Shown here: positions 21,625-44,861 of the stretch, in pieces
Numbering within the stretch: the first letter of the stretch is position 1
Layout: each line of letters opens with the position of its first letter
From: Solirubrobacteraceae bacterium
Lineage (GTDB): Bacteria > Actinomycetota > Thermoleophilia > Solirubrobacterales > Solirubrobacteraceae
Direction of reading: 5' to 3'
Assembly (NCBI GenBank): GCA_017882375.1
Contig: JADGPP010000018.1
Coordinates: 1 to 47,695, forward strand
Length of the DNA stretch: 47,695 bases
Made by a program: the position numbers and the translations under genes
The notes under the pieces: model-generated
What the model saw: the letters and a program-made list of their open reading frames with translations, nothing else
Told to the model about the DNA's origin: nothing
Databases searched by the model: none

Positions 21625-22614
21625 ATGAAATCACTCCTTGGACCAGACTTCTTTATAGTTGGTGCACCCAAGTGTGGAACCACCTCGCTCAATACGTACC
21701 TCGCTGAGCATCCCTCGGTCTTTATGGCCAAAAAGGAGCAGCACTTCTTCGGCTCTGACCTTGCCCCAAGCTGGCCGCAGCCTACCGCTGAGCGGTACTT
21801 CGATTCTTTTGCAGGAACTGAGTGGGCTATGCGTCGAGGCGAGGCATCAGGCTGGTACCTCTGGTCGCGGCGCGCCGCCGAGGAGATTTGTGCCTACAGC
21901 TCAAGCGCACAGATAATCGCGATGCTCCGTAATCCGGTTGACATGCTTCCCTCACTCCATAGCCAGTACTTGCATGACGAGATCGACGATCTGAAAGACT
22001 TTGCGGAAGCTCTTGCCGCGGAAGACGATCGTCGATGCGGTCGGCGCATACCGCCACTCAACGGCTCATATCCCTGGCGGTTGTTCTACAAGGATGTGAT
22101 CCGCTTTCACGAGCAACTCGAACGGTACTACACGGTGTTCGGCCGCGATCAGGTTCATGTGATCCTCTTTGACGATCTCGTCGGCGACCCAGCGACAACA
22201 TACCGGCGCGCCCTAGAGTTCCTTGGCGTGGATCCAGCGTTCGTCCCAACCTTCCGCGTCATGAATCCCAACAAGCGAACCCGGAGTCCCAGAGTGAAGG
22301 GCATGGTAGCCAAAGTCATGGACCCGACATCGAGGATCCGACGTAGCGGCGTCCGTCTCATTCCAGTTCACGCTGTGCGTAGTGCCATGCTCAGGAGTGC
22401 TGTGCCGGCGGCTACGCGGCTGAACACTTCACTGGCGCCTCGGAGCGTGGTTGATCCCGAGCTCGGAGAGGACCTGGCAGCAGAGCTCGCGCCAAACATT
22501 GAGCGGCTCGGGGAAATCCTCGGGCGTGATCTCAGCCACTGGTACTCATCGGCGTGGGACGCGCGGAGACCCCGGTCGAAGGGACATCCCGTGAACCTAC
22601 GCAGGTCTGCATAA
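21625..22614 (+). CDS. PAPS-dependent sulfotransferase
   Basis: A 329-residue member of the carbohydrate sulfotransferase (Sulfotransfer_1) fold. The 5'-phosphosulfate loop FIVGAPKCGTTSLNTYL is at residues ~10-26 and the 3'-phosphate motif is RNPVDMLPSLHSQYLHDEID near residue 110. A KEQHFFG block near residue 35 is typical of heparan-type sulfotransferases. It should transfer sulfate from PAPS to a hydroxyl or amine of a saccharide precursor or chain in the cytoplasm. It lies between the acetyltransferase and the flippase (2-bp gap to the flippase ATG), so co-transcription is likely. Base composition is lower in GC than its neighbours, a hint of separate ancestry. The acceptor is unknown. Confidence 0.9.
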   Translation: MKSLLGPDFFIVGAPKCGTTSLNTYLAEHPSVFMAKKEQHFFGSDLAPSWPQPTAERYFDSFAGTEWAMRRGEASGWYLWSRRAAEEICAYSSSAQIIAMLRNPVDMLPSLHSQYLHDEIDDLKDFAEALAAEDDRRCGRRIPPLNGSYPWRLFYKDVIRFHEQLERYYTVFGRDQVHVILFDDLVGDPATTYRRALEFLGVDPAFVPTFRVMNPNKRTRSPRVKGMVAKVMDPTSRIRRSGVRLIPVHAVRSAMLRSAVPAATRLNTSLAPRSVVDPELGEDLAAELAPNIERLGEILGRDLSHWYSSAWDARRPRSKGHPVNLRRSA

Positions 22615-22616
22615 CC

Positions 22617-24224
22617 ATGTCGCTGGCACCTGCGGGTAGCGCCCCGCGGCAGGCAACGAAGGCCGCAGGCCACGCCCCCGACGGAGTCTTCAGCGACGTC
22701 AGCGCTCAGGCGGCGAGACCGGCCGGATCGATTCGAGGCGCCACGACCGTCGCCAGGGACCTCACAACTAATGGAAGTGGGCGGATCGCGTTGGCCGTGC
22801 TGTCGGCTGGATCGGTGGTAATTACTACCCGCATGCTTGGACCGGCCGGCTACGGGACTCTCGCCCTCGTCGGGATTGTCGCAACGCTCGTGTTTACCGC
22901 GAGCACGGCGTGGACCGGGATAGCTGTCCGGCGCTACGGCCGGGAAGACCTCGAGCTTGGTCGCACCATGAATCGGCTGACGTGGAACCGCGCATTGATC
23001 GGGGCACCGCTGGCAGCGATCTCGGTTGCCGCCGTCCTCACTCTGAAGCTCGTCGGAGCCCTGCCGTCCTCCCTGACGTGGCCGCTGGTCTGGATCGCCA
23101 TTGGATCGGCCCTAGTGGCAATCGTTGTCGATCACTGGGTCTGCATACTGGAGACGAGCGGAAAGATGAAGGTCAGCGCCGTGAGCCAAGTTGCGAGCCA
23201 GGTCCTATACGTTGGGATCCTCGTGGGGTTGTTTGTGGTCGCCCGGCGCGCCAGCCCTCAGACGGTCCTGATGCTCGCGCTCGGCTGTTCGGTTCTGCTT
23301 TCTATAGGCGTGGCTCCCGTGCTGTGGAGGGTCGGTGTGGTGCCTGTGTCGATCGACCGGACCCTATTGCGCCGGATGTTGCGTCTGTCCACTCCCATGA
23401 TTGCTTTCACGATCAGTCAATACGTGTTGGGCTCCGTTGACATCGTCGTCCTTCGTATGTTTCGCAGTCAAGCGGAAGTAGGTGTCTACGCGGTCGCCTA
23501 TCAGGCGTACACAGTGCTGTCGCGTATCGCGGTAAGCGCCACCGCGGTGTTCGTTCCTCTGTTCGTATCGCTTGAGATGGCAGGCCGGCGCAATCTTATC
23601 GAGCGGCACCTGAGACGCGGCGTGCCGCAAGGAACGTTCTTGCTTGCAGCGATAGGCGGCATTGTAATCCCGCTGCTCCCACTGATCGTGCCCGTCATGT
23701 TCGGCCATCGCTTTGAGGCCGCGGCGGCTCCCTTGTCGATCCTTGCTCTCGGCCTGCTTTGTCTGTTTGCAGGGTACCTCGTCTCTCCAATCCTCACGCT
23801 CCACGAGGATACTCGCGCAATAGCAGCGATCACTGCGTTGGCGGCTGTAATTAACGTGGCCGGCGATACGCTCATGATCGGCGTGCTCCACATGGGGATC
23901 GTCGCCCCGGCAATCGCAACATCGGGAGCTTTGGCTTTCGTATTCGCTGTGTTCTACGTGAGGGCTCAGCGGGCGCTTGACCAGGACGTTCGGTTCGATG
24001 CCTGGGTGGTCGCGCCGATCATCTCGGGACTCGTGCCCACCCTCGCGTGGGGCGGCGTTCTGGGTGCAGTAACCGGCATCGTTGCTGCTGCGGTGGCGTC
24101 AGTCGGGATCATAATGTGGCGATCACCGTTCAGTCGCGAGGACGCTGACCTCATCGCCAAGCTAGATCTGCCTGAGCTCGTCAAGCGCGTAGTTGTCAAG
24201 GTAGTTATCATGGGTTCCCGGTGA
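22617..24224 (+). CDS. Wzx-type oligosaccharide flippase
   Basis: A 535-residue polysaccharide transporter of the MOP superfamily with about 12-14 hydrophobic segments beginning near residue 55 (GSGRIALAVLSAGSVVITTR, MLGPAGYGTLALVGIVATLV). The charged first ~50 residues are cytoplasmic. It would move lipid-linked repeat units across the cytoplasmic membrane. ATG 22617 starts 2 bp after the sulfotransferase stop; the frame is open to 22554 but would overlap that gene. The position after wecB, acetyltransferase and sulfotransferase implies that the repeat unit may already be sulfated or acetylated when flipped. The gene converges on the second sulfotransferase, 10 bp away. Confidence 0.9.
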   Translation: MSLAPAGSAPRQATKAAGHAPDGVFSDVSAQAARPAGSIRGATTVARDLTTNGSGRIALAVLSAGSVVITTRMLGPAGYGTLALVGIVATLVFTASTAWTGIAVRRYGREDLELGRTMNRLTWNRALIGAPLAAISVAAVLTLKLVGALPSSLTWPLVWIAIGSALVAIVVDHWVCILETSGKMKVSAVSQVASQVLYVGILVGLFVVARRASPQTVLMLALGCSVLLSIGVAPVLWRVGVVPVSIDRTLLRRMLRLSTPMIAFTISQYVLGSVDIVVLRMFRSQAEVGVYAVAYQAYTVLSRIAVSATAVFVPLFVSLEMAGRRNLIERHLRRGVPQGTFLLAAIGGIVIPLLPLIVPVMFGHRFEAAAAPLSILALGLLCLFAGYLVSPILTLHEDTRAIAAITALAAVINVAGDTLMIGVLHMGIVAPAIATSGALAFVFAVFYVRAQRALDQDVRFDAWVVAPIISGLVPTLAWGGVLGAVTGIVAAAVASVGIIMWRSPFSREDADLIAKLDLPELVKRVVVKVVIMGSR

Positions 24225-24234
24225 GAACCGAGAG

Positions 24235-25101
24235 CTACGCGTGAAGATGTGTGAAGAACCGAGTTCCTCGAAGCTTCGCTTCTACCTCGTCGTAGTTGTC
24301 GATACCAGCTCGATGTGATTGGGGTGCGAGCCTCAACATCACGGCGGAAAGAGATTGGACAGAGTCGACTCCAATGCCCAGAAACCGGAGCGCATCGACC
24401 AGGCCGGCGTCATCCTCGAGGAGGGACTCGTACGTAACCTCATACGCGGTGACAGTGATCGCTCGGAGAAGGAGCTTCATGATGCGTCTCTCCTCCTCTA
24501 GCCGCGTCAAGTCGCGTAGGAGATGCACGGTATCGACGTGGATGCGAACAGTCTCTTGCTGCTCTGGCGTGCGCGCATGGACAAAGCGTCGCGCCTTCAT
24601 CGCTTCGCGAGACAGTACAATGTCGAGGAGATTCGTGCGGAGAAGGTGCAGCACGCGGACCTGCCGAGCGCGGAGGTAGACAAGGATCTCCGGATGGCGA
24701 ATCACCTGTGGGTACATTAGCTTGAAACCAATCGCACGAAAATTGAGTCGCGGCTCGTAGAGATAGTCGAGGTAGCGGAAGAGATCTAGATGCCAGCGGA
24801 GACGAGAGCCATCAGCGTTGCGTTCCTTGAGGTAGGTCGTGAAGAAGGGGCGATCAGCCGCACCGGGCGGCCAGTTCGACCATCCCTCCACCCCGCGCAG
24901 CAGTACCTCCCCATAGCCACCGACTTCCGGGTGCTTGGCGAGGCGTTCCATTACCCAGCTCGTACCGCTGCGCTGAGTGGAAAGCAAAACGAACCGGGTC
25001 AGGGGCTCGCCGCGGTGAAGAGGCGTAGCTATGTGCGGGACGGGATGAGGAGGCTTAGGGATGGACACTGCCGCTTCTACGTCACGAACGGCCGGGCGCA
25101 T
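24235..25101 (-). CDS. Sulfotransferase (Stf0/NodH-like)
   Basis: A 288-residue sulfotransferase distinct from the one at 21625. The 5'-phosphosulfate loop reads FVLLSTQRSGTSWVMERLAKH near residue 35, and the 3'-phosphate block LLRTNLLDIVLSREAM near residue 155. These match the Stf0/NodH type used on sugar acceptors. ATG 25101 is chosen; an in-frame GTG at 25125 would add eight residues. Either start overlaps the end of the upstream amidotransferase gene on the same strand (20 or 44 bp), indicating an operon of glycosyltransferase, amidotransferase and sulfotransferase. Acceptor unknown. A second sulfotransferase in one polysaccharide locus suggests sulfation at two positions or sugars. Confidence 0.85.
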   Translation of the reverse strand: MRPAVRDVEAAVSIPKPPHPVPHIATPLHRGEPLTRFVLLSTQRSGTSWVMERLAKHPEVGGYGEVLLRGVEGWSNWPPGAADRPFFTTYLKERNADGSRLRWHLDLFRYLDYLYEPRLNFRAIGFKLMYPQVIRHPEILVYLRARQVRVLHLLRTNLLDIVLSREAMKARRFVHARTPEQQETVRIHVDTVHLLRDLTRLEEERRIMKLLLRAITVTAYEVTYESLLEDDAGLVDALRFLGIGVDSVQSLSAVMLRLAPQSHRAGIDNYDEVEAKLRGTRFFTHLHA

Positions 25102-27016
25102 CCGCGACACCCGTCGTTGACGCACGATCGGTGATCGGCGACTCCACGACCTCTCGGTGCCAAAGCTCCAGTTGCAGGAGCACCCACAACCGCAGTGAAT
25201 GGTCGGCCAACCCGGCCTGATGTTGCTCGATCATCTGCGCGATCGCCGCCGGCTTGATGTATGCGTGAACGCGCGTGTCTGATCCCATGAGGACTTCGCC
25301 TGGAAGCTCGCGGAGGTCTTCGCGGAACCAGCGGGTCAGCGGAACACCGAATCCCATCTTCGGCCGGTCGAGCACCTCATCCGGCAGGATGCCCCGCAGA
25401 GCGGACTTAAGCAGCACCTTTCCGGCCATCCCGCGAAGCTTAAGGCTCGTCGGCAGCCCGGCGGCGAACTCCATTAGGTGATGATCCAAGAACGGCGAGC
25501 GCCCCTCTACGGAGTAGGCCATGGTCGCGATGTCCATCTTCACGAGGAGGTCTCCCGGCAGGTAGGTGTTGATGTCAGTGTCGAGCATGCGATCTACGCG
25601 GGATCGTGCGCTGGACCCGTACCACACCTCACGAATCACGTCCTCTGGATGCCAGTCGTCTATGGATGCGAGCAGCTCAGGCTGGAGCATGTCTGCATGG
25701 ATAGACGATGGAAATGCCGACATCCAATACGCGTAACGCTCGTATGGCTCCCTGGCCAGCACTCGAGCGAGACGCTGAATTCGTGCGCGCCAGCTATTGC
25801 TACGAGGCCCGTCGCCAAGCGGCGCTAGCACCGCTGGTGCCAGGCGTCGCAGCGACCGTGGGAGCCAGTTGAAGCGGTCAGCCAAGTCATTGCTGATGTA
25901 GCGTCCGTAACCGGCGAAGCTCTCATCCCCGCCATCGCCGTTAAGCGCTACCGTCACATGTTGTGAACTCAATTTGGCGAGGTAGAAGCTTGGAATCGCT
26001 GATGGATCGGCGAATGGCTCGCCGTAATGGCGCGCAAGCGTTGGCATGATCTCAAGAGCGTGAGGCTCGACGACAAACTCGTGATGATCCGTCGAGAAGC
26101 GCTCGGCGATCATTCGTGCATAGCGAAGCTCATCGAATTCGGCATCGGGAAAGCCGATCGAAAATGTCTTGACAGGCTCGGACGTCTGCTCGGACATAGC
26201 CGCGACGATTGCGCTCGAGTCAATCCCTCCCGAAAGAAACGCTCCAAGCGGAACCTCACTGATCAGGCGAACACGAGTCGCCTCCCAGATTAATTCGCGC
26301 AGTCGCTCTCTCAGGTCCTTCTGTGCAGGCTGTCGCTCTGGCTTTCTATAGTCGAGTGTCCAGTAGCGGCACGCACTGACTTCGTCTACGCTTACCGCTA
26401 GCGTTGACGCGGGCGGCAGCTTCTCGATGCCGACAAATGCGCTCATGGGATTAGGCACATATTGATAGGCGAGGTAGCTGACGATCGCTCGCGTGTTGGG
26501 CGTGCGATCGATCTCCGGGTCCTGCAGAAGCGCCATCATCTCGGAGGCAAACCACACCTTGCTGCCACGCCGCATAAGAAAGAGAGGCTTCTTACCGACA
26601 CGGTCTCGGCCTAGCAGCAATCGCTGCTGTCGGACGTCCCAGATCGCGAATGCGAACATGCCGCGGAGCTGGTTGACAAAACGGTCACCGTAGTCCTCGT
26701 ACAGGTGGACGAGTACCTCCGTGTCACAGTGGGTTGTAAACGCGTGGCCCCCAGCGAGAAGTTGGGCACGCAGCTCTTGAAAATTGTAGATCTCACCGTT
26801 CATGACGACTGCGGCCGAGCGATCCTCATTGAAGATGGGCTGATCTCCACCAGCGACATCGATGATGGCAAGGCGCTGCATGCCAAGGCCCGCGTGTCCA
26901 TCACACCAGACACCTCGCGAGTCCGGTCCCCGATACTCCATGGCAGCGCACATGCGATGAAGGAGCGCTGGGTCGACATCACCCGCAAAGTCGATCTTGC
27001 CGACTATTCCGCACAT
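25082..27016 (-). CDS. asnB: Asparagine-synthetase-type amidotransferase (AsnB family)
   Basis: A 644-residue glutamine-dependent amidotransferase. Cys2 of MCGIVG is the glutaminase nucleophile; YRGPDSRGVW, GEIYNFQEL and HCDTEVLVHLYEDYG complete the class-II glutaminase domain (residues 1-~200). The synthetase domain has the ATP pyrophosphatase loop FLSGGIDSSAIVAAM near residue 260. It could make asparagine. In polysaccharide loci, however, similar enzymes (for example WbpS of Pseudomonas) are thought to amidate uronic-acid sugars, and here it lies in an operon with a glycosyltransferase and a sulfotransferase. It overlaps both neighbours (13 bp with the glycosyltransferase gene). A second paralogue is at 39896. 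Confidence 0.9.
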   Translation of the reverse strand: MCGIVGKIDFAGDVDPALLHRMCAAMEYRGPDSRGVWCDGHAGLGMQRLAIIDVAGGDQPIFNEDRSAAVVMNGEIYNFQELRAQLLAGGHAFTTHCDTEVLVHLYEDYGDRFVNQLRGMFAFAIWDVRQQRLLLGRDRVGKKPLFLMRRGSKVWFASEMMALLQDPEIDRTPNTRAIVSYLAYQYVPNPMSAFVGIEKLPPASTLAVSVDEVSACRYWTLDYRKPERQPAQKDLRERLRELIWEATRVRLISEVPLGAFLSGGIDSSAIVAAMSEQTSEPVKTFSIGFPDAEFDELRYARMIAERFSTDHHEFVVEPHALEIMPTLARHYGEPFADPSAIPSFYLAKLSSQHVTVALNGDGGDESFAGYGRYISNDLADRFNWLPRSLRRLAPAVLAPLGDGPRSNSWRARIQRLARVLAREPYERYAYWMSAFPSSIHADMLQPELLASIDDWHPEDVIREVWYGSSARSRVDRMLDTDINTYLPGDLLVKMDIATMAYSVEGRSPFLDHHLMEFAAGLPTSLKLRGMAGKVLLKSALRGILPDEVLDRPKMGFGVPLTRWFREDLRELPGEVLMGSDTRVHAYIKPAAIAQMIEQHQAGLADHSLRLWVLLQLELWHREVVESPITDRASTTGVADAPGRS

Positions 27017-28191
27017 GTGAGTTCAACCCCCTCACCCAATGACGGTCTATCGTCGCCGACCGCACGATCTGACAGGATGTCAAGCCATCGGACAGCTATC
27101 ATGTCCGGGGCGTGATGTGCTGCTATGTACGAGCGGCACCGCTCTGAGAGATCTCGCCTGTCGTTGCGGGTCTGCCATTGCTCGCGCGCGAGCGCCACGA
27201 AAGCCCGGTGTGACCCACCAGCAAAGCTGCCTAACCCGTATCTGCCTATGACTCCGCCCGGATCATGGTTTAGGGCAAGCGCCGGCACGCCTCTGCTCCA
27301 CGCCTCAAGCAAGACGTTTGGCATACCCTCAAAGTCAGCCGTGTTAACCGACGCGACCGCGCGCGACATGAGTGCCTCAATCTCCGAGTGTGACCGAGGA
27401 GGTAGCAACTCAACGTTGGAAAGCTCCTCGGCCCCCGCAATCACCGCATCGACCAGCCGCTTATCATGCTCGTCGCTCGGCGTAGGTACGCCGATCATCC
27501 AGAAGCGTGCTTCTGGTAGAGCGCGGGCGAGAGCGAGATACTCGAGCGGGCGCTTGTAAGAGACCAGACGCCCAACCCAGATGAAGGCCTCTGGCATTCC
27601 ACGCTGTGGCTCGGCGGTCGCTGAAATGCTCTTGATCAGTGTGGGGTGACGACCAAACTTCGCCTTGCACAGCTCGATTTGCTCCTCTGTCTGGACAACG
27701 ATGCAGTTGGCCAGACGGACGCCCAGACTGTAGATGAGTAGATCGCGGTGGCGGGGCATCAACTTGCAGTAGTCAAAGTCGACGACATTCGCGCTCGAGA
27801 ACACCAAGCGCCGGCCAGCCATCCGTGCGTACACGGCAATCAAGCCGAGATCGATGCCGGCACCACGCTTAACCACCGTCCTGGAGGGCGCACGCCAGAG
27901 CGCCCTCCATATCTGGAAGGTCTCGAGGAACTTACCGATAAGCCGACTTCTCTTGCGATAATGCGGACGCGTGACGATGCTCACGCCATCGACGATCTTT
28001 GGTAGCTCATCAGCCCTGCCGTATACGATGATCGCGACAGACAAGCCGTGCCGGACTAGGACCTTGGCAAGCGCCAGTACCTGCGTCTCCGCTCCGCCCG
28101 GTGGCAGCGATGCCGTCGTGGACAGGATCGAACCTACCCACGGAGTGTAAAACACTACGTCGTGGCGTCGTGCTGTGCGCTCGCGCCTCAT
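27004..28191 (-). CDS. Family 4 glycosyltransferase
   Basis: A 395-residue GT-B fold enzyme. The N-terminal acceptor domain has the loop SLPPGGAETQVLALAKVLVR; the C-terminal nucleotide-sugar domain has FIWVGRLVSYKRPLEYLALA and the family EX7E element as EGMPNVLLE, followed by GVPALALN. It would transfer a sugar with retention at the cytoplasmic face of the membrane. It is the first gene of the minus-strand operon continuing into the amidotransferase and the sulfotransferase, overlapping the former by 13 bp. Donor and acceptor are unknown. The same pairing of a GT4 enzyme with an AsnB-type protein recurs at 39.9-42.8 kb. Confidence 0.9.
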   Translation of the reverse strand: MRRERTARRHDVVFYTPWVGSILSTTASLPPGGAETQVLALAKVLVRHGLSVAIIVYGRADELPKIVDGVSIVTRPHYRKRSRLIGKFLETFQIWRALWRAPSRTVVKRGAGIDLGLIAVYARMAGRRLVFSSANVVDFDYCKLMPRHRDLLIYSLGVRLANCIVVQTEEQIELCKAKFGRHPTLIKSISATAEPQRGMPEAFIWVGRLVSYKRPLEYLALARALPEARFWMIGVPTPSDEHDKRLVDAVIAGAEELSNVELLPPRSHSEIEALMSRAVASVNTADFEGMPNVLLEAWSRGVPALALNHDPGGVIGRYGLGSFAGGSHRAFVALAREQWQTRNDRRDLSERCRSYIAAHHAPDMIAVRWLDILSDRAVGDDRPSLGEGVELTCAE

Positions 28192-28557: not shown

Positions 28558-28790
28558 GAGGGATCACGGCGAGCCGCGCGTTGCGGATGCGGATGCTGTT
28601 GTGGCGTTCGTGCTCGAGGTAATCGAGGAATGCGCCGATCAGCGGAGCGTCGAGGTCCTCGGGATCGACCTGGCAGGGCTGTTTGCCGGTTCGCCGTGCG
28701 GCGAAGGCAAGCAGCAGCCTGAGCGTGTCACGGTAGGCGTCGAAAGCCCCTTGGCGGGGAAGCGAAAGAACCGCGTTTCGCCGGCCGTTG
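28558..28790 (-). pseudogene. Truncated tyrosine recombinase/integrase (N-terminal domain)
   Basis: On the minus strand an open stretch encodes FDAYRDTLRLLLAFAARRTG, KQPCQVDPEDLDAPLIGAFL, then DYLEHERHNSIRIRNARLAVI. This is the SAM-like N-terminal core-binding domain of the Xer/phage-integrase family as found in IS91-associated integrases. The usual continuation (a segment like HSLFRYAAL and the catalytic R-H-R-Y domain) is missing; after ARLAVI the frame runs into unrelated sequence. The expected N-terminal block before AYRDT is degraded. The product cannot be an active recombinase. It lies between the glycosyltransferase start and the acyltransferase start and marks a past insertion or recombination. 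Confidence 0.75.
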
Positions 28791-28913
28791 ATGGGTTATG
28801 TGGCCCATGCGCCCGCTTATAGGATTCTCGATTTGAGCCTGCCAGGCGTCCTCGGGCGCCGCCTCGGAGGTCGACGCCCTTCCTCCCGCCTATCGAGCGG
28901 TCCCTCCCCTAAA

Positions 28914-31169
28914 ATGCGCCGAGCGTCGAGTGAAGGGGGGGGGACGCAGAGCGGCAAGTATCTCGCGACGCGTCGTCGCCGAGACATCCAGGGTTTGCGC
29001 GCAGTCGCCGTGCTCTTGGTCGCCCTCAACCATGCGGGCGTTGGTTTTCTGAAGGGCGGCTATGTCGGTGTAGATGTGTTCTTCGTTCTCTCCGGCTACC
29101 TGATCACCGGATTGCTTGTGTCGGCAGCCGACAAGGCACGTGGTCGCAGGGACTTCTCCCGTAAGTACTTTTCCGAGTTCTATGCGCGCCGAGCGCGTCG
29201 CATCCTCCCCGCCGCGACACTCACGCTGGTCGTCACCGACCTCGCGGCGTCCGGCCTGCTCAACGTGGAGCGGGCGCATCAAGTTCTGGTGGACAGCATC
29301 TATTCCACCTTCTTTGTGGCCAATTTCCACTTCGCGAGCATCGGCACGAACTACTTTGACATCGGGCAACCGCCATCGCCGCTCCAGCACTTCTGGTCGC
29401 TGTCAGTCGAGGAGCAGTTCTATCTCGTCTGGCCTCTGCTGCTGGTGATCGCCCTTCTAGGCATAACCCTTCGCGGGCACCATGATGACCAACGGAACAG
29501 ACCGTTATCCCGGGGAGCATTCCGCGCTTTGGGGGGCATCGCGGTGGTTATCACAGTGGCGTCTTTGGTGTATGCCGTCTACGACACGCATCACAGCTCG
29601 ACGGCCGCGTACTTCTCGTCACCTGCACGCGCGTGGGAGTTGGGCTTGGGCGCAATTCTTTCGCTCAACGTGCGCCGGTTCGCGCGCCTACCATCAGCGC
29701 TGCTAATGCCTATTGGCTGGTTGGGGGTTGCCGCCATCCTCGTCGCGAGCACCTTGTACTCCGCCTCCACTTTGTTCCCGGGACTACCCGCCCTCTTGCC
29801 GGCTATCGGTGCCGCAGCCGTTATTGCGGCTGGACTCAACGTCGATCAGTCTCCCAGCGCGCCGTCGCGGATCTTGTCCCTGCGGCCCTTTCGCTACGTC
29901 GGCGATCGCTCGTACACCTTTTACCTCTGGCACTGGCCGGTGCTTGTCTTGGTCGCGGAGCATGTCGGCCATAGCCTTTCGCTCACCACGAACCTCCTTC
30001 TTCTCGCTGGCGCATTTGTGCTCTCGATCGTCACTTACGCGCTCTTTGAGAACCCGATTCGTCAAACGGCCAAGGTGCCAGGTCCGGTTGCACTCGCATT
30101 TTGGCCGACGGCGATAATCACCGTACTTCTCGTCAGCTCGATCCATTGGAGCGATTACCAAGACGCGTTGAATTTCGCCTACGTGCCCGCTCACCGCCCG
30201 GAAATCCTAAAGGAATCGGAGGCCTCCTTTGTTGCGTCCACAGAACCCGCTCACCCTGGCTGGCGTCCATCGAGCCCGCCGGCTCTCGTGGAAGCTGTCG
30301 CTGCGGTACGCAGTTCGCGCAGGCTTCCGTCACCCCTGATACCGTCGGCTCTCGAACTCCCAAGCTCTGAGTACACACCCCCCGGAGGGTGCCTTGGCGA
30401 GCTCGTGGGGACACACAGTTCGATATGTAGCCTCGGAGACACCTCCAGCAGGAAGTCCCTCGTGGTGTTCGGGGACTCACACGCTAACATGTGGATGCCG
30501 GCGATCCTAAGCTTCGCGCAGCGTGAAAAATACGATGTGCGAGCGATTATGAAAAGTGGCTGTACAGCGAACCAGTGGGGTGGAAAAACCGAATGCGGCA
30601 CTTGGTACAAGTGGGGAGTTTCGCAGGCGCGCGGCCTGCATCCGTCGCTCCTAATCGTTACGGCCAGCTATAACGCAGTGGACTCGGAGGGCGTCGAATC
30701 CGAGGAACCAACCGTGATCGAAAATCTCTCCAAATTTGGTGCGGCCGTTCGATCGTCAGCCCACCGGATCGTTGTTATCGGTGATCCGCCCAAGCAGGGT
30801 CAGGAACCGACCGACTGTCTCCTTTCGTCACAGGCCACGATGAAGCGCTGTAGCGAGTCGGAAGGATCTGGGCAAGCCAGAATCACTGCGGGCGTCGAAT
30901 CGGCAACGAAGGCTTTTGGTGTGTTTCTCGACACCACACCGTGGTTGTGCTACCAGGGCGTATGCCCGATGGTCGTCGGCCATACGGTCGTTAAGCTCAA
31001 CCAGGGTCACATTACGGCGAGGTACGCCGAAGAGCTGGAGCCATTGTTCACTTCGGCGCTGAGGCGACTGCTGGCCCTTGGGGGGGCAGCTAGGCCGCGC
31101 CGCGCCGTAACCGTCTCGCATGCGCTGCGTAGCGGGGCATCCGTATCCGGCCACACGCACTTTCGGTAG
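28914..31169 (+). CDS. AT3-SGNH O-acyltransferase (OafA/YrhL type)
   Basis: A 751-residue membrane acyltransferase. The N-terminal AT3 domain begins DIQGLRAVAVLLVALNHAGV with YVGVDVFFVLSGYLIT and has about 10-11 membrane segments; ARRARRILPAATLTLVV and SVEEQFYLVWPLLLV are classic AT3 blocks. The C-terminal ~300 residues form an SGNH-type extracytoplasmic domain with LVVFGDSHANMW (block I) and a late LNQGHITA in the place of the catalytic Asp-His block. It would move acyl groups (usually acetyl) onto the polymer outside the membrane. ATG 28914 is chosen, though no good ribosome site precedes it and the frame opens at 28788 inside the integrase remnant; the remnant may have displaced the natural start. 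Confidence 0.9.
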   Translation: MRRASSEGGGTQSGKYLATRRRRDIQGLRAVAVLLVALNHAGVGFLKGGYVGVDVFFVLSGYLITGLLVSAADKARGRRDFSRKYFSEFYARRARRILPAATLTLVVTDLAASGLLNVERAHQVLVDSIYSTFFVANFHFASIGTNYFDIGQPPSPLQHFWSLSVEEQFYLVWPLLLVIALLGITLRGHHDDQRNRPLSRGAFRALGGIAVVITVASLVYAVYDTHHSSTAAYFSSPARAWELGLGAILSLNVRRFARLPSALLMPIGWLGVAAILVASTLYSASTLFPGLPALLPAIGAAAVIAAGLNVDQSPSAPSRILSLRPFRYVGDRSYTFYLWHWPVLVLVAEHVGHSLSLTTNLLLLAGAFVLSIVTYALFENPIRQTAKVPGPVALAFWPTAIITVLLVSSIHWSDYQDALNFAYVPAHRPEILKESEASFVASTEPAHPGWRPSSPPALVEAVAAVRSSRRLPSPLIPSALELPSSEYTPPGGCLGELVGTHSSICSLGDTSSRKSLVVFGDSHANMWMPAILSFAQREKYDVRAIMKSGCTANQWGGKTECGTWYKWGVSQARGLHPSLLIVTASYNAVDSEGVESEEPTVIENLSKFGAAVRSSAHRIVVIGDPPKQGQEPTDCLLSSQATMKRCSESEGSGQARITAGVESATKAFGVFLDTTPWLCYQGVCPMVVGHTVVKLNQGHITARYAEELEPLFTSALRRLLALGGAARPRRAVTVSHALRSGASVSGHTHFR

Positions 31170-31190
31170 AAGGGATGCGGTGACTAGCAC

Positions 31191-32174
31191 ATGAGTGAGG
31201 CGCCTCTGCACGAGATCCGCGGCGGCCGATTCCTGCCGTTTGCGGTCGAGCGCGCAGTGAACGCGGCCCGCTCACGTGGACCGGGATACGAGCCGACCCC
31301 CATCGGAACTGCCTTCGACAACGAAACCGTCTTGGGCTACTACATCGACTTTTGCTCCAAGACTGTCTCCAAGATCGCGGCTGACACCGACCGAATCCTT
31401 GCCGTCGCTCTCATGCAGCTGGCGCTTGGATGGTGGGAGCGCAATGTGGCGGGGGAGTCCCGTGCGCTGGATGAGTTCCTGAAGGTGTGCGACGTGATCG
31501 AGGGTCGCGCGCAGAAGACAGGGGATGAGCTGCGCTGGCCAGCCTCCGTGCCGGTTGCCAAGTACGGGCTCAAGCCCCCGTGGTGCTCTGCGCTGACGCA
31601 AAGCCAGGCCGCCTCGGTGTTCGTGCGTGCTCATCTGGCGACCGGGGAGGAACGCTATGCCGACCTCGCCAACCGCGCGGTGCGGCCGCTGCTCAGCGAC
31701 CGCTCGTCAGCCCTGGTGAGTCAGACAGCCTTTGGACCGATCCTCGAGGAGGCACCCGGTGCGCCGGCCAGCCATATCCTGAACGGCTGGATCACTGGGC
31801 TGTGGGGTCTTTGGGACGTGCACCTGGGTCTTGGGGACGCGTGCGCCGGCGAAAGCTTCTACGCAGGCGTGGAGTGCTTGCGCGTGCATCTCCATGCGTA
31901 TGACACGGGCTGGTGGAGCCGCTACAGCCTCTATCCGCACGCGCTCGAGGATCTCGCGAAGCCGATCTACCACCGTTATCACGTGGACCAGCTTGAAGTC
32001 CTCCATCGCCTCACAGGCCACGAGGACCTGAAGGAGGTCGCGACTCGCTGGGAGAGCTACGACCGCTCCCCTCTGCGCGCGCTCGCACTTGCGCAGAAGG
32101 CGGCGTTTGCCGTAGCCGAGAGGGGTAGGCGGCAACGCTGGCAAGTCCGTTTTGAGGCACAGCGGTCACCTTGA
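31191..32174 (+). CDS. D-glucuronyl C5-epimerase-like protein
   Basis: A 327-residue protein matching the C-terminal catalytic domain of D-glucuronyl C5-epimerases (Glce_C family). Family blocks: SHILNGWITGLWGLWDVHL (194-212), FYAGVECLRVHLHAYDTGWW (223-242), SRYSLYPH and IYHRYHVDQLEVLHRLTG (259-276). Animal and bacterial members turn D-glucuronate into L-iduronate within heparosan- or alginate-like chains. No signal peptide is visible, so it would act in the cytoplasm or on lipid-linked units, or be exported by another route. It is 21 bp after the acyltransferase and followed by a Wzy-type gene. With two sulfotransferases in the locus, an iduronate-containing sulfated polymer is a reasonable hypothesis; substrate specificity cannot be read from sequence. 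Confidence 0.82.
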   Translation: MSEAPLHEIRGGRFLPFAVERAVNAARSRGPGYEPTPIGTAFDNETVLGYYIDFCSKTVSKIAADTDRILAVALMQLALGWWERNVAGESRALDEFLKVCDVIEGRAQKTGDELRWPASVPVAKYGLKPPWCSALTQSQAASVFVRAHLATGEERYADLANRAVRPLLSDRSSALVSQTAFGPILEEAPGAPASHILNGWITGLWGLWDVHLGLGDACAGESFYAGVECLRVHLHAYDTGWWSRYSLYPHALEDLAKPIYHRYHVDQLEVLHRLTGHEDLKEVATRWESYDRSPLRALALAQKAAFAVAERGRRQRWQVRFEAQRSP

Positions 32175-32372
32175 CGACTTGGCTGTTAACTGCCCTGGTT
32201 TACTCTGCGCTAAGATTCCGCGATGGGTCCTTGTAAACCCGATCCGCAAGGATGGGGTGAGTACCTTGCTCCGCCTCGTGAGTCCACAGCCGAGGTGAGG
32301 TTCTTGGCATCTCTTGCCCGTCGAAAGATCCGGCAGCTGCACGTGTCGGCTGACCCGCAGTAGAACAAAGTG

Positions 32373-33770
32373 ATGCCGGCGAACTGGAGATCAGCTAACC
32401 GGCTGGCGGGAGCGGCCATGCTTTTCGGGCTTATAGCGCTCGTAGATGGCTATGCCATCGCAGAGGGTAAAGCGACGATCGCGATTGCATTTGTGGTCGT
32501 GCCGTTGTTGATATTGCGGCGCATCAGAAGGTACGATGGACTCGCCGTTGCGTTGATACTCACGTTGGCGCTGCCGTCCTGGTACACGCTCGGGAGTCCA
32601 CAGGCTACCGTGTTTCGGATAGCTGCGATATCTGCATTGGCGACAGCGCTCTTTGCGCGAGGGGTCCGTTTCACGCTTGCCGACGCTGCGGTCGTCGCAA
32701 TAGTCGTGGTGGCCGTACTTGGCTGGCTACTGCAGGACGATCAGCCGGGCGTCGGCAAACTCGTGCTCAACGAGATGCTTCCTCTCTCTTTCTACGTGTC
32801 GGCGCGTACGCTGCCAGTTCGCCAAATTGGGCGGTTCATGACTCTCGTTTCTATTGCCGGTGTCTTCGGGGCCGCAACCGTGATCTACGAGTTCGTCGCA
32901 GGCCACGTTTTGTTCCACGAACGCCTAAGCTACGTCTGGAACACAACCGAAACAACGATCTTTCGGCCGGGAGGCATATTTGGGAGCCCGCCCACTGCCG
33001 CATCGGTGCTCGCAATGGCGATTCTCTGCGGCATACCTGTCAACCGTATGCTGAACGGAAAGTGGCGCTTGATGCATAGAGTTTGCCTTGCCGTGATGAC
33101 CACCGCGTGCGCTCTGACTTTCACACGCACGAGCCTTATCGGGCTCGGTGTTGGATTGCTCACTTACCTTTTCTTGATGCGGTCATCGCTGATTACTCCG
33201 CCACGGTTGCTCGCAGGCGCCGTCACGTTGTTTGTGGTTGTAGTCGTTGTGCTCCCGCAGATCGAAAATACCAGGACGTTCCAGCAAGGCATCGTCCGCC
33301 CAGGCAGCTTGGCGGTGCGAGAGGATTACTGGCAACTGGCGCTACCCATAATAACCGCGAGTACTCACAATGTGATCTTTGGAATCGGCTCCGAGCGTAC
33401 GCTTATCTCTCGAACCGGAGGTGCTGTACCGTCGTCGCTTGCGACCGCGCCCGCGCTCTTCGAGCACAGCATCCAGAATCAATATGTGTTGACGGCGCTT
33501 GAGAATGGATTCATCGGGCTACTTGTGCTTTTGGCATGGATCGCTGCCGTGATACGCACAGGGCTTCGGACGGTGCGCAAGGAGAGTGATCATCTCAGCG
33601 CAGCACTTGTTGGAGTTCTTCTCGCATTCGTCGTGGTGCTGGTGGCTAACGATGCGTTGCTTTCTCAACCGGGCTTTGCGATGGCCGCGCTGGTATCGGG
33701 ACTCATCGTTGCGAGAAGTATGGCGAAGCGTGGGACGGAGGAGGATCTCTCCAGGATGATCCGACCCTAG
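32373..33770 (+). CDS. O-antigen polymerase/ligase-type membrane protein (Wzy-like)
   Basis: A 465-residue protein with about 11-12 hydrophobic segments (for example AGAAMLFGLIALVDGYAI and LLAGAVTLFVVVVVVLPQI) and a large extracytoplasmic loop near residues 300-370. TFTRTSLIGLGVGLLTYLF and HSIQNQYVLTALENGFIGLL are typical of the O-antigen ligase/Wzy group. It likely polymerises flipped repeat units. ATG 32373 and the GTG three bases earlier are equivalent. GC content is lower than in region 1. This is the second Wzy-like protein in the window (see 13990), so one may polymerise and the other ligate chains to a lipid or wall anchor. Confidence 0.85.
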   Translation: MPANWRSANRLAGAAMLFGLIALVDGYAIAEGKATIAIAFVVVPLLILRRIRRYDGLAVALILTLALPSWYTLGSPQATVFRIAAISALATALFARGVRFTLADAAVVAIVVVAVLGWLLQDDQPGVGKLVLNEMLPLSFYVSARTLPVRQIGRFMTLVSIAGVFGAATVIYEFVAGHVLFHERLSYVWNTTETTIFRPGGIFGSPPTAASVLAMAILCGIPVNRMLNGKWRLMHRVCLAVMTTACALTFTRTSLIGLGVGLLTYLFLMRSSLITPPRLLAGAVTLFVVVVVVLPQIENTRTFQQGIVRPGSLAVREDYWQLALPIITASTHNVIFGIGSERTLISRTGGAVPSSLATAPALFEHSIQNQYVLTALENGFIGLLVLLAWIAAVIRTGLRTVRKESDHLSAALVGVLLAFVVVLVANDALLSQPGFAMAALVSGLIVARSMAKRGTEEDLSRMIRP

Positions 33771-36182: not shown

Positions 36183-36703
36183 TTAGGTTCGGCGGCCCCG
36201 TGTTGTGGGCAGCTTCGAGAGGGGACTGCGGCCGGTGATGCTCGGGTGGTGGGCACGGCCGGCCTCGGCGGTCAGCGGTAGGCGGGGAGCGTGTCGAGGC
36301 GCTTGAACGCGCAGGATGGCTCCAGCCCAGGGCTGGTTAACGGGTAGGTGCAGGGCGGTGCGCCGGGCGTGGCGGTTGATCTGCTCTGCGATGTCCGGGA
36401 TTCGGTAGCGCACCCGCTTGGGTTCGCTGATGGCGGCCGCGCCGTCGAGAGCCAGCGGCTGTGTCAAGACAAGGATGGCGTGGGCCAGCAACGCAAGCTC
36501 GAACCATGTGGCGTTCACCTGAAGGTACTAGAACGGGAGTTACTCCGCGCCGGTGGCCTTCAGCGTCTTGACGCGTCTTCAACTTCCGCGTGCTGGCGGT
36601 GCCGGGCCTCAAGCGCCGCGATGTCCTGGTCGTCTTGGTTGGTGATGAAGGATTGGAAGTGCCGCCCGTCCACGTCGGTGAACGCGTGAGCTGCGCCCCG
36701 GGG
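36183..36703 (-). pseudogene. Frameshifted IS1380-like transposase remnant
   Basis: Two frames together spell the C-terminal third of an IS1380-family transposase. The first (36703 down to 36560) reads GAAHAFTDVDGRHFQSFITN and QDIAALEARHRQHAEVED; the second (36518 down to 36183) reads NATWFELALLAHAILVLTQP, LALDGAAAISEPKRVRYRIP and on. These correspond to the FTDVDGHRFTCFATN, LELRHRRRARCED and EPKRLRLRLF blocks of intact members. A frameshift and stop separate them and the N-terminal part is gone. No terminal inverted repeats were identified. It is an inactive remnant. Confidence 0.7.
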
Positions 36704-39895: not shown

Positions 39896-41773
39896 CTACG
39901 CCGCCAGGAAGCGTCGCGCCCAGAGCTCGAACGAAAGCAGGCAGAATATCTGCCGGGTGTGATCGAACTCACGGCGTTGATGTCGGTGCAGCAGGGCTCG
40001 CACCGCGTCGCGGGAGAACAGCTGCGTCGAGAATGCATCGTCGGCCAGGAGCAGCTCGTCGGCGAACGCCTTCATGTCGGTTCGCAGCCAGCGATCGACC
40101 GGTGTGACGAAGCCGCGCTCCTTGCGATGCACGATCTCGCGTGGAAGCACCGGCGTGAGGGCCGCCTTCTCGACCACCTTGCGCCGGCCCCGGCGGATCT
40201 TGAACGAGCTGGGCATGGACTCGACGAACTCGACGAGGTCGGAGTCCAGGAATGGCACGCGCATCTCAACCGACTCGGCCATCGACATCTTGTCTCCAAC
40301 CAGGAGCAGGTCGTCAGGCAGCCACAGCCTGGTGTCCACATACATAATCTGATTGAGCGGATCACGGTCCAGGACTTCACGGCGCAGGTGCTCAACGCGC
40401 TCGGCTGCAGTACTGTGTCCATTCGCCAGGCACTGTGCGGTCAGCTCAGGACCGTAGAGTTCGCGCTTTTGCTCCTCCGTGAAGACGGCATAGATGTTCA
40501 TGAAGCGCTGAAGCACATTTGGGTACCTGAGAGCCCTCAGGCCGCGCTCAAGGCGGGCGGAGCGAACCCGATCCGATGCGCGCCCCAGCGGCGCCAGCGC
40601 GCTCGGCAGAGGTCTGGGCAGTCGCAGCGCGATGCCAGCGACCCACTCGCCTACGTAGCGCCAGTACCCGGCCAGCAGCTCATCGGCCCCCTGTCCACTG
40701 AGCAAAACGGGTACGTGCTCGCGGGCCAGACGCGAAATCTGGCGGAAGCCGAGCGCCGAGCTGGTACCGACCGGCTCCTCGAGCATCTCGATGACCGCCG
40801 GAAGCTCGGCCGCGAAATCACTGTGGCCCACGATGAGCTCGTGGTGTTCGGTCCCAAACAGCTCGGCGGTCTCCCGGGCGAGCCCGGTCTCGTCCGCGTC
40901 ACCTCCCCCTTCGAAGCCTACGGTGAACGTCTTGACCTGCGAGCTCCTCTCGGCCATTAGCGCCACGACCGCCGCCGAGTCGACTCCGCCGCTGAGCATC
41001 ACGCCGATCGGCCGGTCACTCATCATCTGACGGTGAACGGACCTGCGTAGGTGCTCGCGCAGCCCGTCGGCAGCGTCGTCGAATGGCATGTCGTCCCGAA
41101 TCGCCGGCCGTGGATTCCAATAGCGCCGCTTGTTCCCCGTCCCCTCCCGCCAGACCAGGACGGTCGCTGGCTCGAGCTTCTCGACCCCGGCGATCAGCGT
41201 GCGCGGCGCGGGCGTGAATCGGTACGTGAGGTGCTCATCCAGGGCGACCGGATCGAGTTGCCGCGGAACGGCTGGATCCTGCAACAACGCCTTGATCTCG
41301 GAGGCGAAGCGCAGCTGGGAGCCTGTGCGATGGAGATAGAGCGGCTTGACCCCAAGCTGATCGCGGGCGAGGAGCAGCGTGCGCGACTGCTCGTCCCAAA
41401 GTGCGATCGCGAAGATGCCGTTCAGGCGTCCTGCAAACTCCGGGCCCAGCTCCTCGTAGAGATGAGGGATCACCTCTCCGTCGGTGCGTGAGCGGAAGCG
41501 ATGGCCACGCTCTTGCAGTTCGGCTCGGAGCTCGTCGTGGTTGTATATCTCGCCGTTGAAGACGACATGCACGGTCCTCGCCTCGTTGCGAAGCGGCTGC
41601 GCGCCCCCCTGCACGTCGACGATCGCAAGCCGTCGCATGCCGAGCGCGACATCCTCCTCGCCCCACAGGCTCTCGCCATCCGGTCCGCGGTGGGCCATGG
41701 CTGACACCATGCGAGCCAGGACCTCGCGCCGCACTGGAACTCCAGGCGTGATGATGCCGGCGATGCCGCACAC
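39896..41773 (-). CDS. asnB: Asparagine-synthetase-type amidotransferase, second copy
   Basis: A 625-residue glutamine-dependent amidotransferase starting at GTG 41773, which shares its G with the TAG stop of the upstream glycosyltransferase, so translation is coupled. Cys2 of the CGIAGI start, HRGPDGES, GEIYNHDEL and RTDGEVIPHLYEELG make the glutaminase domain; MLSGGVDSAAVVALM near residue 260 is the ATP-binding loop of the synthetase domain. The frame open to 42133 is only overlap with the upstream gene. It is the last gene of a five-gene polysaccharide operon. The role is either asparagine synthesis or, more likely from context, amidation of a uronic-acid sugar; compare the paralogue at 25082. 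Confidence 0.92.
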   Translation of the reverse strand: MCGIAGIITPGVPVRREVLARMVSAMAHRGPDGESLWGEEDVALGMRRLAIVDVQGGAQPLRNEARTVHVVFNGEIYNHDELRAELQERGHRFRSRTDGEVIPHLYEELGPEFAGRLNGIFAIALWDEQSRTLLLARDQLGVKPLYLHRTGSQLRFASEIKALLQDPAVPRQLDPVALDEHLTYRFTPAPRTLIAGVEKLEPATVLVWREGTGNKRRYWNPRPAIRDDMPFDDAADGLREHLRRSVHRQMMSDRPIGVMLSGGVDSAAVVALMAERSSQVKTFTVGFEGGGDADETGLARETAELFGTEHHELIVGHSDFAAELPAVIEMLEEPVGTSSALGFRQISRLAREHVPVLLSGQGADELLAGYWRYVGEWVAGIALRLPRPLPSALAPLGRASDRVRSARLERGLRALRYPNVLQRFMNIYAVFTEEQKRELYGPELTAQCLANGHSTAAERVEHLRREVLDRDPLNQIMYVDTRLWLPDDLLLVGDKMSMAESVEMRVPFLDSDLVEFVESMPSSFKIRRGRRKVVEKAALTPVLPREIVHRKERGFVTPVDRWLRTDMKAFADELLLADDAFSTQLFSRDAVRALLHRHQRREFDHTRQIFCLLSFELWARRFLAA

Positions 41774-42810
41774 TAGACGGGAATCTTCATGGGAGCCAAG
41801 CCGGGAACGAGCTCGGCGTAGAGGTCCAGGAGGCGCTCCGCGATCCGCTCCTGGCCGAGCCAGTCCGAGCGCTCCGAGCCGTTGCTGCGTCGCCGCACGG
41901 TCAGGCATTCGACAAGCGCGCCGGCGAGGGACCCTGGCTCCGCGGCGCAGACCCACGAGGGATCGATGTCGCCCAGGATCTCGGCGACGTCCCCGACGTC
42001 CGTGGAGATGACCGGGAGGTCGCAGGCCATCGCCTCCTTGACGACGTTCGGCGAGCCCTCGATCGCCGAGGTGAGCAACAGGCAGTCGGCGCCCGCCATC
42101 AGCATCGGCATCTCCGCTGGAAGCGTGCCCCAAGCCACCTCGAGTCGGACCGGTCCAAGCTCTCGCTCAGCGTCTCGGCACGCCGCCTCGGCGAGCCAAT
42201 GGCGCTTGCGCTCCACCGCCGGATCCGCCGCGAAGAGGACGATGCGATCCTCGGCAGCCCAGCCCAGGGAGCGGCGAGCCTCCTCCCCTGAGCGAGGATG
42301 AAAGATCGAGCGGTCGACGCCGTTGGGCACCACTAGGTTGCGTTTGCGCGCGGAGGGGTGCAGCGTGCCCTCCATCTCGGCCGACTTGGTGACGGTGCGA
42401 TTTATCAGCCGCGCATGGGCGCGCAGCAGTGCCCGGCGAACGCGACTCGCTGGAGTAATCGAACCGTCCGCTCGCGGGGTGCCCAGCACGTCGTCCCCGC
42501 AGTAGGAGACCACCACCGGTCCTCGTACGTACCAGCGCGCTACGAGTGCGGTCTCTCCCCCGTGGGCATGCACCAACCGCGGCCGACGCGATGAGAAGTT
42601 GCGTCGCAGCATGCGTAGTGACTCACGAACATAGGCCCAGCGCGTTCGGTGGCCTTCAATGAAGATCACCTCGCAGTCGAGCCCTCGTGTCCGCAGCGAT
42701 TCGATCTGGCGGAAGACGAAGATGCCATACCCCGGATGCTCCTCCGTCGGCCACATGTTCGTGACCATCAGCACATCAGGTCGGTCTTCTCTGGCGGAGC
42801 GAAGCCGCAT
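41773..42810 (-). CDS. Family 4 glycosyltransferase
   Basis: A 345-residue GT-B enzyme. It opens PDVLMVTNMWPTEEHPGYGI with VFRQIESLRTRG, a typical GT4 acceptor-side start; the donor side has VVPNGVDRSIFHP, IVLFAADPAVERKRHWLAEA and the EX7E element as EGSPNVVKE, followed by LPVISTDVGDVAEIL. It probably adds one sugar to the lipid-linked repeat unit at the cytoplasmic face. ATG 42810 lies 2 bp after the stop of the DUF354 gene and its stop overlaps the amidotransferase start, so both neighbours are co-translated in one operon. The donor is unknown. Confidence 0.9.
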   Translation of the reverse strand: MRLRSAREDRPDVLMVTNMWPTEEHPGYGIFVFRQIESLRTRGLDCEVIFIEGHRTRWAYVRESLRMLRRNFSSRRPRLVHAHGGETALVARWYVRGPVVVSYCGDDVLGTPRADGSITPASRVRRALLRAHARLINRTVTKSAEMEGTLHPSARKRNLVVPNGVDRSIFHPRSGEEARRSLGWAAEDRIVLFAADPAVERKRHWLAEAACRDAERELGPVRLEVAWGTLPAEMPMLMAGADCLLLTSAIEGSPNVVKEAMACDLPVISTDVGDVAEILGDIDPSWVCAAEPGSLAGALVECLTVRRRSNGSERSDWLGQERIAERLLDLYAELVPGLAPMKIPV

Positions 42811-44850: not shown

Positions 44851-44861
44851 CAAATGCCTCC

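What the first reader, a model, noticed from the sequence alone, without database searches (positions are those of the whole stretch)
31191..32174. Cytoplasmic-looking C5-epimerase-like protein
The protein is only the catalytic C-terminal domain (327 residues) and lacks a signal peptide, unlike secreted or Golgi C5-epimerases. If active it would act before export, on lipid-linked units, which differs from known polymer-level epimerisation.
Basis: partly seen in the sequence, partly recalled or inferred. Interest (0 to 1): 0.55.

Follow-up and report, generated by a model that had tools for sequence, protein, structure and literature searches.

The report
Intracellular uronate C5-epimerase in polysaccharide cluster
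[quoted passage not shown] unlike the animal enzyme it looks built to work inside the cell, which would make the flip an early step of building a surface polysaccharide rather than a finishing step, but its activity has not been tested.

Summary
The ORF at 31191-32174 (+) is a genuine PF06662 (D-glucuronyl C5-epimerase C-terminal) protein of 327 residues. An in-frame stop sits directly upstream of its start, and hydropathy shows no signal or membrane segment. It keeps the proposed proton-transfer pair of human GLCE (E187 = E499, Y260 = Y578) plus N510 and Y560, but has Ala in place of Tyr500. The short form is not peculiar to this window: searches gave 60 short-class loci (52 clusters at 85% identity), 56 without a hydrophobic segment before the domain. 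A GT4 glycosyltransferase lies within 1.5 kb in 42 of 60, against 1 of 24 long-class loci; the window itself is not among the 42 (nearest GT4 3 kb away). In relatives the domain is fused to glycosyltransferase or deacetylase domains, and in the nearest relative it lies inside an overlapping GT4 operon. This supports a cytosolic step before Wzx export. Activity, substrate and stage are untested. A new variant of a known kind.

The parts
31191..32174 (+). Short, signal-less C5-epimerase-like protein (327 aa, PF06662), focus of the finding
   Evidence: structure; fold
31185..31187 (+). In-frame TAG stop just upstream of the start codon, excludes a longer N-terminus
   Evidence: sequence
31749..31754 (+). 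Codons of E187 (= human E499, proposed proton donor) and A188 (= human Y500, lost here)
   Evidence: alignment; numbering; mechanism PMC12834895 section 16
31782..31784 (+). Codon of N198 (= human N510)
31923..31925 (+). Codon of Y245 (= human Y560)
31968..31970 (+). Codon of Y260 (= human Y578, proposed general base)
28788..31169 (+). AT3 acyltransferase with SGNH domain, ends 21 nt before the epimerase, same strand (co-transcription is an inference)
   Evidence: gap
32370..33770 (+). Wzy_C O-antigen polymerase/ligase-like protein, downstream neighbour
13990..16050 (-). Second Wzy_C polymerase/ligase-like protein
22554..24224 (+). Polysacc_synt (Wzx-type flippase)
21625..22614 (+). Sulfotransferase (PF13469/PF00685)
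24235..25125 (-). Possible second sulfotransferase (weak: PF13469 17.9 bits, under the cut-off of 27; P-loop-like N-terminal motif recognised from memory)
25082..27016 (-). Asn-synthase-type amidotransferase
27004..28191 (-). GT4-type glycosyltransferase, nearest to the epimerase (3 kb upstream, opposite strand)
39896..42133 (-). Second Asn-synthase-type amidotransferase
41773..42810 (-). GT4-type glycosyltransferase
43876..45009 (-). NAD-dependent sugar-nucleotide epimerase/dehydratase, specificity not resolved (no NCBIfam model shown over its cut-off)
44862..46484 (-). Polyprenyl glycosylphosphotransferase (Bac_transf), start of lipid-linked assembly
18069..19742 (-). Wzz/P-loop chain length protein

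Best explanation
The protein is a cytosolic uronate C5-epimerase, most likely D-glucuronate to L-iduronate, of a short PF06662 class that serves bacterial surface-polysaccharide assembly. Working model: Bac_transf starts an undecaprenyl-linked unit, GT4 enzymes extend it with a hexuronate, this enzyme abstracts the C5 proton with Y260 and re-protonates from the other face with E187, then Wzx flips and Wzy polymerises the unit. Shown here: domain, fold, retained residues, lack of a visible export signal, and clustering or fusion with glycosyltransferases in relatives. Inferred: activity, GlcA as substrate, and the lipid-linked stage rather than a cytosolic polymer.
For: PF06662 120.7 bits. GLCE structures are the best fold matches: Foldseek E 1e-10, rmsd 2.1 over 213 columns; Z 28.3, rmsd 7.7, 285 aligned, next family Z 16.0. 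E499, N510, Y560 and Y578 equivalents are kept here, and in 59, 59, 60 and 58 of 60 short-class rows. No upstream start or hydrophobic N-terminus; 56 of 60 short-class rows lack a hydrophobic segment before the domain against 7 of 27 long-class rows. GT4 within 1.5 kb in 42 of 60 short-class loci against 1 of 24; 41 of 57 when the window, L077 and L078, which gave GT4 seeds, are left out. One-ORF fusions: GT4 + epimerase (L070), epimerase + glycosyltransferase (L120), GINT1_N-like + epimerase (L102, L104, L110), epimerase + deacetylase (L064). In the nearest relative L077 (52% identity) the gene overlaps a GT4 gene by 13 nt upstream and another by 4 nt downstream. Tree: window, L077 and L078 form a clade (100/98), sister to the clade of the GT4 fusion L070 (97/96).
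Against: Tyr500, listed among the key catalytic residues of GLCE (PMC13308652), is Ala188. I saw no assay of any enzyme shown to belong to this class. In the window itself no GT4 lies within 1.5 kb; the nearest, 27004-28191, is 3 kb away on the other strand. UDP-glucose dehydrogenase (PF03721) is not in the window but on contigs C150 and C167. No gene of the window was identified as a glucuronosyltransferase. GLCE needs substrates of at least six sugars. Of 23 other same-genus genomes, 20 gave only weak matches to P0001 (E 1.7e-14 or worse) and 3 none, so the gene is sporadic. The two classes are not cleanly separate: 4 of 60 short-class rows (L098, L118, L121, L124) have a hydrophobic segment, and six long-class rows (two of L119; L143, L147, L148, L150) branch among the short class, 4 of those 5 loci with a GT4 in their flanks. 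The model is poor over residues 1-45 and 55-64.
Confidence: 0.6

Rival explanations
1. Cytosolic epimerase that acts on an intracellular polymer rather than on lipid-linked repeat units, as could happen in capsules whose chain is completed inside the cell before export.
For: GLCE acts on chains of at least six sugars; the Bermanella enzyme was shown active on heparin- or heparan-type polymer (passages).
Against: The window carries Wzx, two Wzy-like proteins, Wzz and Bac_transf, the parts of a unit-by-unit pathway; P0001 lacks the extra GLCE domains.
Confidence: 0.12
2. C5-epimerase on a different uronate (for example galacturonate to L-altruronate, or an N-acetylated or amidated uronate), not glucuronate.
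For: Position 188 differs from GLCE and varies in the class: Y 39, C 12, A 3, others 6 of 60. Two amidotransferases and a sugar-nucleotide epimerase of unresolved specificity lie in the cluster.
Against: The proton-transfer pair and N510, Y560 are those of a GlcA enzyme; no direct evidence for another substrate.
Confidence: 0.15
3. Catalytically dead or merely substrate-binding paralogue.
For: Loss of Tyr500; a second short-class copy with Tyr there on contig C167 of the same genome.
Against: E499, N510, Y560, Y578 equivalents are all kept; the nearest relative L077 shares the Ala and keeps the rest; the frame is intact.
Confidence: 0.09
4. Exported enzyme acting outside the cell despite lacking a signal peptide.
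For: 20 of 27 long-class rows have a hydrophobic segment before the domain, so export is common in the family.
Against: In-frame stop before the start codon, no hydrophobic segment, relatives fused to glycosyltransferases of cytosolic type.
Confidence: 0.04

Closest known systems
GLCE, animal heparan-sulfate D-glucuronyl C5-epimerase (PDB 4PW2, 4PXQ, 6HZZ, 6I01, 6I02)
   Same: Catalytic domain family PF06662, fold, proton-transfer pair E499/Y578, N510, Y560
   Different: P0001 lacks Tyr500, the beta-hairpin and beta-sandwich domains and any visible export signal; sits in a bacterial Wzx/Wzy cluster
Bermanella marisrubri RED65_08024 (bacterial C5-epimerase, Raedts 2013; known here only through passages of other papers)
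   Same: Bacterial and GLCE-like; PMC13308652 section 6 says that alignment suggests a GLCE-like mechanism
   Different: Its sequence was not obtained here, so length, topology and relation to P0001 are not compared
Agl32 of Halobacterium salinarum
   Same: Reported to epimerise GlcA in a lipid-linked oligosaccharide before export; predicted to be a helical domain only
   Different: Reported to have none of the GLCE catalytic residues; P0001 keeps four of five; archaeal N-glycan rather than bacterial surface polysaccharide
Long-class PF06662 proteins of Solirubrobacterales (own paralogue on C47, L075)
   Same: Same Pfam domain, same genome
   Different: 536 aa in L075; hydrophobic segment near the N-terminus; no GT4 found in its flanks; E499 kept in only 12 of 27 long-class rows

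Membership tests
PF06662 C5-epim_C domain family | Profile score above the curated cut-off | tested here: met
   120.7 bits against 23.3
PF06662 C5-epim_C domain family | Fold of the GLCE helical domain | tested here: met
   Foldseek E 1e-10 to GLCE, rmsd 2.1; Z 28.3, rmsd 7.7, 285 aligned; model pLDDT 75.6
GLCE (animal-type heparan-sulfate C5-epimerase) | Proton-transfer pair E499 and Y578, with N510 and Y560 | tested here: met
   E187, Y260, N198, Y245
GLCE (animal-type heparan-sulfate C5-epimerase) | Tyr500 | tested here: not met
   Ala188
GLCE (animal-type heparan-sulfate C5-epimerase) | Exported protein with N-terminal beta-hairpin and beta-sandwich domains | tested here: not met
   327 aa, mostly helical model, no hydrophobic N-terminus, stop upstream
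GLCE (animal-type heparan-sulfate C5-epimerase) | GlcA to IdoA activity | not testable with these tools
   needs an enzyme assay
Agl32-type archaeal C5-epimerase | Active site without the GLCE residues | tested here: not met
   four of five GLCE residues present; Agl32 description from PMC13308652 section 6
Agl32-type archaeal C5-epimerase | Acts on a lipid-linked oligosaccharide before export | not testable with these tools
   gene context only
AGE-superfamily 2-epimerases (cellobiose 2-epimerase) | Helical barrel with the AGE catalytic residues | tested here: inconclusive
   similar fold, Z up to 16.0 (rmsd 3.8, 248 aligned) against 28.3 for GLCE; no AGE family among Pfam matches at E 0.001; AGE residues not checked

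The most novel reading that the evidence does not exclude
Solirubrobacterales, and perhaps other bacteria, run a glycosaminoglycan-like modification programme inside the cell: a signal-less NodB-type deacetylase, a PF06662 C5-epimerase and sulfotransferases modify lipid-linked units next to or fused with the glycosyltransferases, before Wzx export, in the reverse order of compartments from the Golgi pathway. In the window itself the deacetylase is missing, so only the epimerase and sulfation parts would apply there.
Probability: 0.25. Interest if true: 0.75.

Novelty: new variant of a known kind. Interest (0 to 1): 0.45.

Why it matters
In animals iduronate is made after polymerisation, in the Golgi. 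A GLCE-type enzyme working on growing lipid-linked units would show that one catalytic domain serves two opposite orders of synthesis, and it would offer small, soluble, single-domain enzymes for making iduronate-containing sugars. The fusions make the question directly testable: L070 suggests which glycosyltransferase hands over the substrate, and L064 suggests that deacetylation and epimerisation are coupled. A 2015 review passage (PMC4432689) says that sulfation had not been observed in prokaryotic glycosaminoglycans, and passages of a 2026 paper on Actinoplanes (PMC13390465) raise a sulfated actinobacterial polysaccharide as a possibility.

Tried and rejected
Rejected: a missed upstream start (in-frame TAG); the minus strand in register with the ORF as one gene (three stops inside); a lanthionine-synthetase reading (NCBIfam LanL hit of 20.4 bits against a cut-off of 650); Agl32-type membership (active site differs). 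The idea that short signal-less forms are unusual was dropped.

Led nowhere: the first scan of genome contigs with the single protein found no relative, so a 13-member alignment was used. PHROGs gave nothing for two unannotated neighbours. Papers of Debarnot 2019, Raedts 2011 and 2013 and Qin 2015 are not held; their content is known only through other papers. No paper of the held library names PF06662 by accession. Searches for bacterial C5-epimerase, and for it with sulfotransferase, exopolysaccharide and iduronic acid, with Bermanella, with Wzx and capsule, with N-deacetylase and gene cluster, and with Wzy and glycosyltransferase listed no report that I recognised of a signal-less bacterial PF06662 enzyme acting before export. 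That is judged from listings (30 of 54, 15 of 109), starts of abstracts, and passages or sections of PMC4432689, PMC12834895, PMC12561193, PMC4189415, PMC9000132, PMC13390465, PMC11980604 and PMC13308652.

Limits: the split into short and long class uses my own threshold of 130 bits against profile A1, and the hydropathy cut of 1.9, both chosen after seeing the values. The classes are not two clades. The pattern scan lists at most 80 loci and favours forms like the query. The 60 short-class loci are the window, 12 taken from whole genomes and 47 from genome contigs, and fall into 52 clusters at 85% identity, so they are not independent. Phylum names come from record titles of metagenome bins, and some bins may be mislabelled: L121 and L124 are nearly identical under two phyla. 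Neighbour families were found by phmmer with seeds from the window, L064, L070, L077 and L078, so sulfotransferases and flippases are undercounted. Many loci are cut by contig ends, and many long ORFs have over-extended 5' ends. Nine loci on contigs already fetched were dropped before counting (L079, L080, L084, L085, L089, L091, L093, L095, L096). The counts therefore rest on 60 and 24 loci, 60 and 27 protein rows. Some exceptions in the residue counts may be alignment faults: L078 has one extra residue in the E499 motif, and L121 and L124 lack an aligned Y578.

Full report
What is there. The ORF 31191-32174 (+) encodes 327 residues with a strong PF06662 match (120.7 bits, cut-off 23.3) and sequence matches to solved animal GLCE (E 1.9e-20 to 3.6e-18). 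An in-frame TAG at 31185-31187 bars a longer N-terminus. Hydropathy shows no signal or membrane segment; no dedicated predictor was on hand. An AlphaFold model from a 13-row alignment has mean pLDDT 75.6 and pTM 0.78, poor over residues 1-45 and 55-64. Its best fold matches are GLCE structures: Foldseek E 1e-10, rmsd 2.1; Z 28.3, rmsd 7.7 over 285 residues, next family Z 16.0.

Active site. The numbering of the human chain was checked by script. E187, N198, Y245 and Y260 correspond to human E499, N510, Y560 and Y578; A188 takes the place of Y500. A review describes Tyr578 as the base and Glu499 as the proton donor (PMC12834895, section 16 read). Another paper lists E499, Y500, N510, Y560 and Y578 as key residues (PMC13308652, section 6 read), and a third calls Y500, Y560 and Y578 critical (PMC12561193, passages). 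So the proposed proton-transfer pair is intact and one key tyrosine is lost. Among 60 short-class rows the Y500 position is Tyr in 39, Cys in 12, Ala in 3 and others in 6; E499 is kept in 59, N510 in 59, Y560 in 60, Y578 in 58. The nearest relative L077 also has Ala.

Relatives. The own genome holds three PF06662 proteins: this one, a short-class copy on C167 (39% identity over the aligned part) and a long one with a hydrophobic N-terminal segment on C47. Of 101 genomes searched, the own one included, 81 have a PF06662 match. Strong matches to P0001 (E 6.6e-38 or better) occur in only 11 besides the own genome, all marked same order and none same genus or family; of 23 other same-genus genomes 20 gave weak matches and 3 none. 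A profile scan of named genomes gave 78 loci. Titles and lineages of the short-class loci name 14 phyla, with the caution that metagenome bins can be mislabelled. Contigs shared with same-order relatives are titled Solirubrobacterales, Thermoleophilaceae and Conexibacter among others, so the window most likely comes from that actinobacterial order (inference). The tree puts the window with L077 and L078 (100/98), sister to L070, L083 and L090 (97/96), while the own long-class protein falls in a separate clade of 20 rows (100/100). Six further long-class rows, from L119, L143, L147, L148 and L150, branch among the short class.

Topology and company. In the short class 4 of 60 rows have a hydrophobic segment before the domain, in the long class 20 of 27. 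A GT4 gene lies within the fetched flanks in 50 of 60 short-class loci and 4 of 24 long-class loci, and within 1.5 kb in 42 of 60 and 1 of 24; without the window, L077 and L078, which gave GT4 seeds, it is 41 of 57. The window itself is not among the 42: its nearest GT4 is 3 kb upstream on the other strand. In L077 the order is Wzy_C, GT4, GT4, epimerase, GT4, GT4, with overlaps of 13 and 4 nt around the epimerase. Single ORFs join the epimerase domain to GT4 (L070), to a group-1 glycosyltransferase (L120), to a GINT1_N-like domain (L102, L104, L110) and to a polysaccharide deacetylase (L064). GT4 enzymes as a rule use cytosolic nucleotide sugars (established knowledge), so these fusions argue for a cytosolic epimerase.

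Deacetylase link. In 8 of 11 same-order relatives a PF01522 gene lies beside or is fused to the short-class epimerase gene (7 directly, 1 with a GT4-like gene between), although these 11 genomes hold only 2 to 10 such genes each. Both short-class genes of the own genome lack it: none lies on the window's contig, and the nearest on C167 is about 13 kb away. In L066, L068, L074 and L088 the deacetylases (PF01522) begin at or close to the catalytic domain without a signal peptide by hydropathy; that of L068 overlaps the epimerase gene by 4 nt, that of L088 lies about 3.2 kb away. Sulfotransferase genes (PF13469) lie within about 12 kb of the short-class gene in G065, G095, G087, G074 and the window, 5 of 12 genomes examined; G073, G086 and G100 have none at all.

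The window cluster. Around the gene lie a Bac_transf, Wzx, Wzz, two Wzy-like proteins, GT4 enzymes, two amidotransferases, one clear and one weak sulfotransferase, and an SGNH/AT3 acyltransferase whose stop is 21 nt before the epimerase start. UDP-glucose dehydrogenase is elsewhere, on C150 and C167.

How it works. Most likely the enzyme equilibrates a hexuronate at C5 within an undecaprenyl-linked oligosaccharide before Wzx. Shown: family, fold, residues, lack of a visible export signal, association. Inferred: activity, substrate, stage.

What is known. Agl32 acts on the GlcA of a lipid-linked glycan before membrane transfer (PMC13308652; abstract, first of five parts of the text, section 6 and passages seen), but reportedly without GLCE's active site. 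[quoted passage not shown] its own paper is not held. So pre-export epimerisation is not new as an idea; a GLCE-type enzyme doing it in bacteria, with glycosyltransferase and deacetylase fusions, was not seen in the searches made.

Noticed in passing
G000:C56:13883-22714 (own genome, outside the window): A run of PF13469 sulfotransferase matches on one strand, apparently a tandem array.
   Followed up: no
L075 and the other long-class rows: Long-class PF06662 rows keep the Y500 equivalent in 21 of 27 but E499 in only 12 of 27, so many may not be epimerases of the GLCE type.
   Followed up: partly
window 36183-36518 (-): Fragment matching the C-terminal part of a DDE transposase (20.7 bits, below the cut-off of 34.7), perhaps a remnant of an insertion in the cluster.
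   Followed up: no
window 25082-27016 (-) and 39896-42133 (-): Two Asn-synthase-type amidotransferases in one polysaccharide cluster, both nearest to the XrtA/PEP-CTERM amidotransferase model but below its cut-off.
   Followed up: no
L102:8165-10738, L104:8168-10738, L110:4945-7518: Proteins of 856-857 aa that join a GINT1_N-like domain to a C5-epimerase domain.
   Followed up: partly
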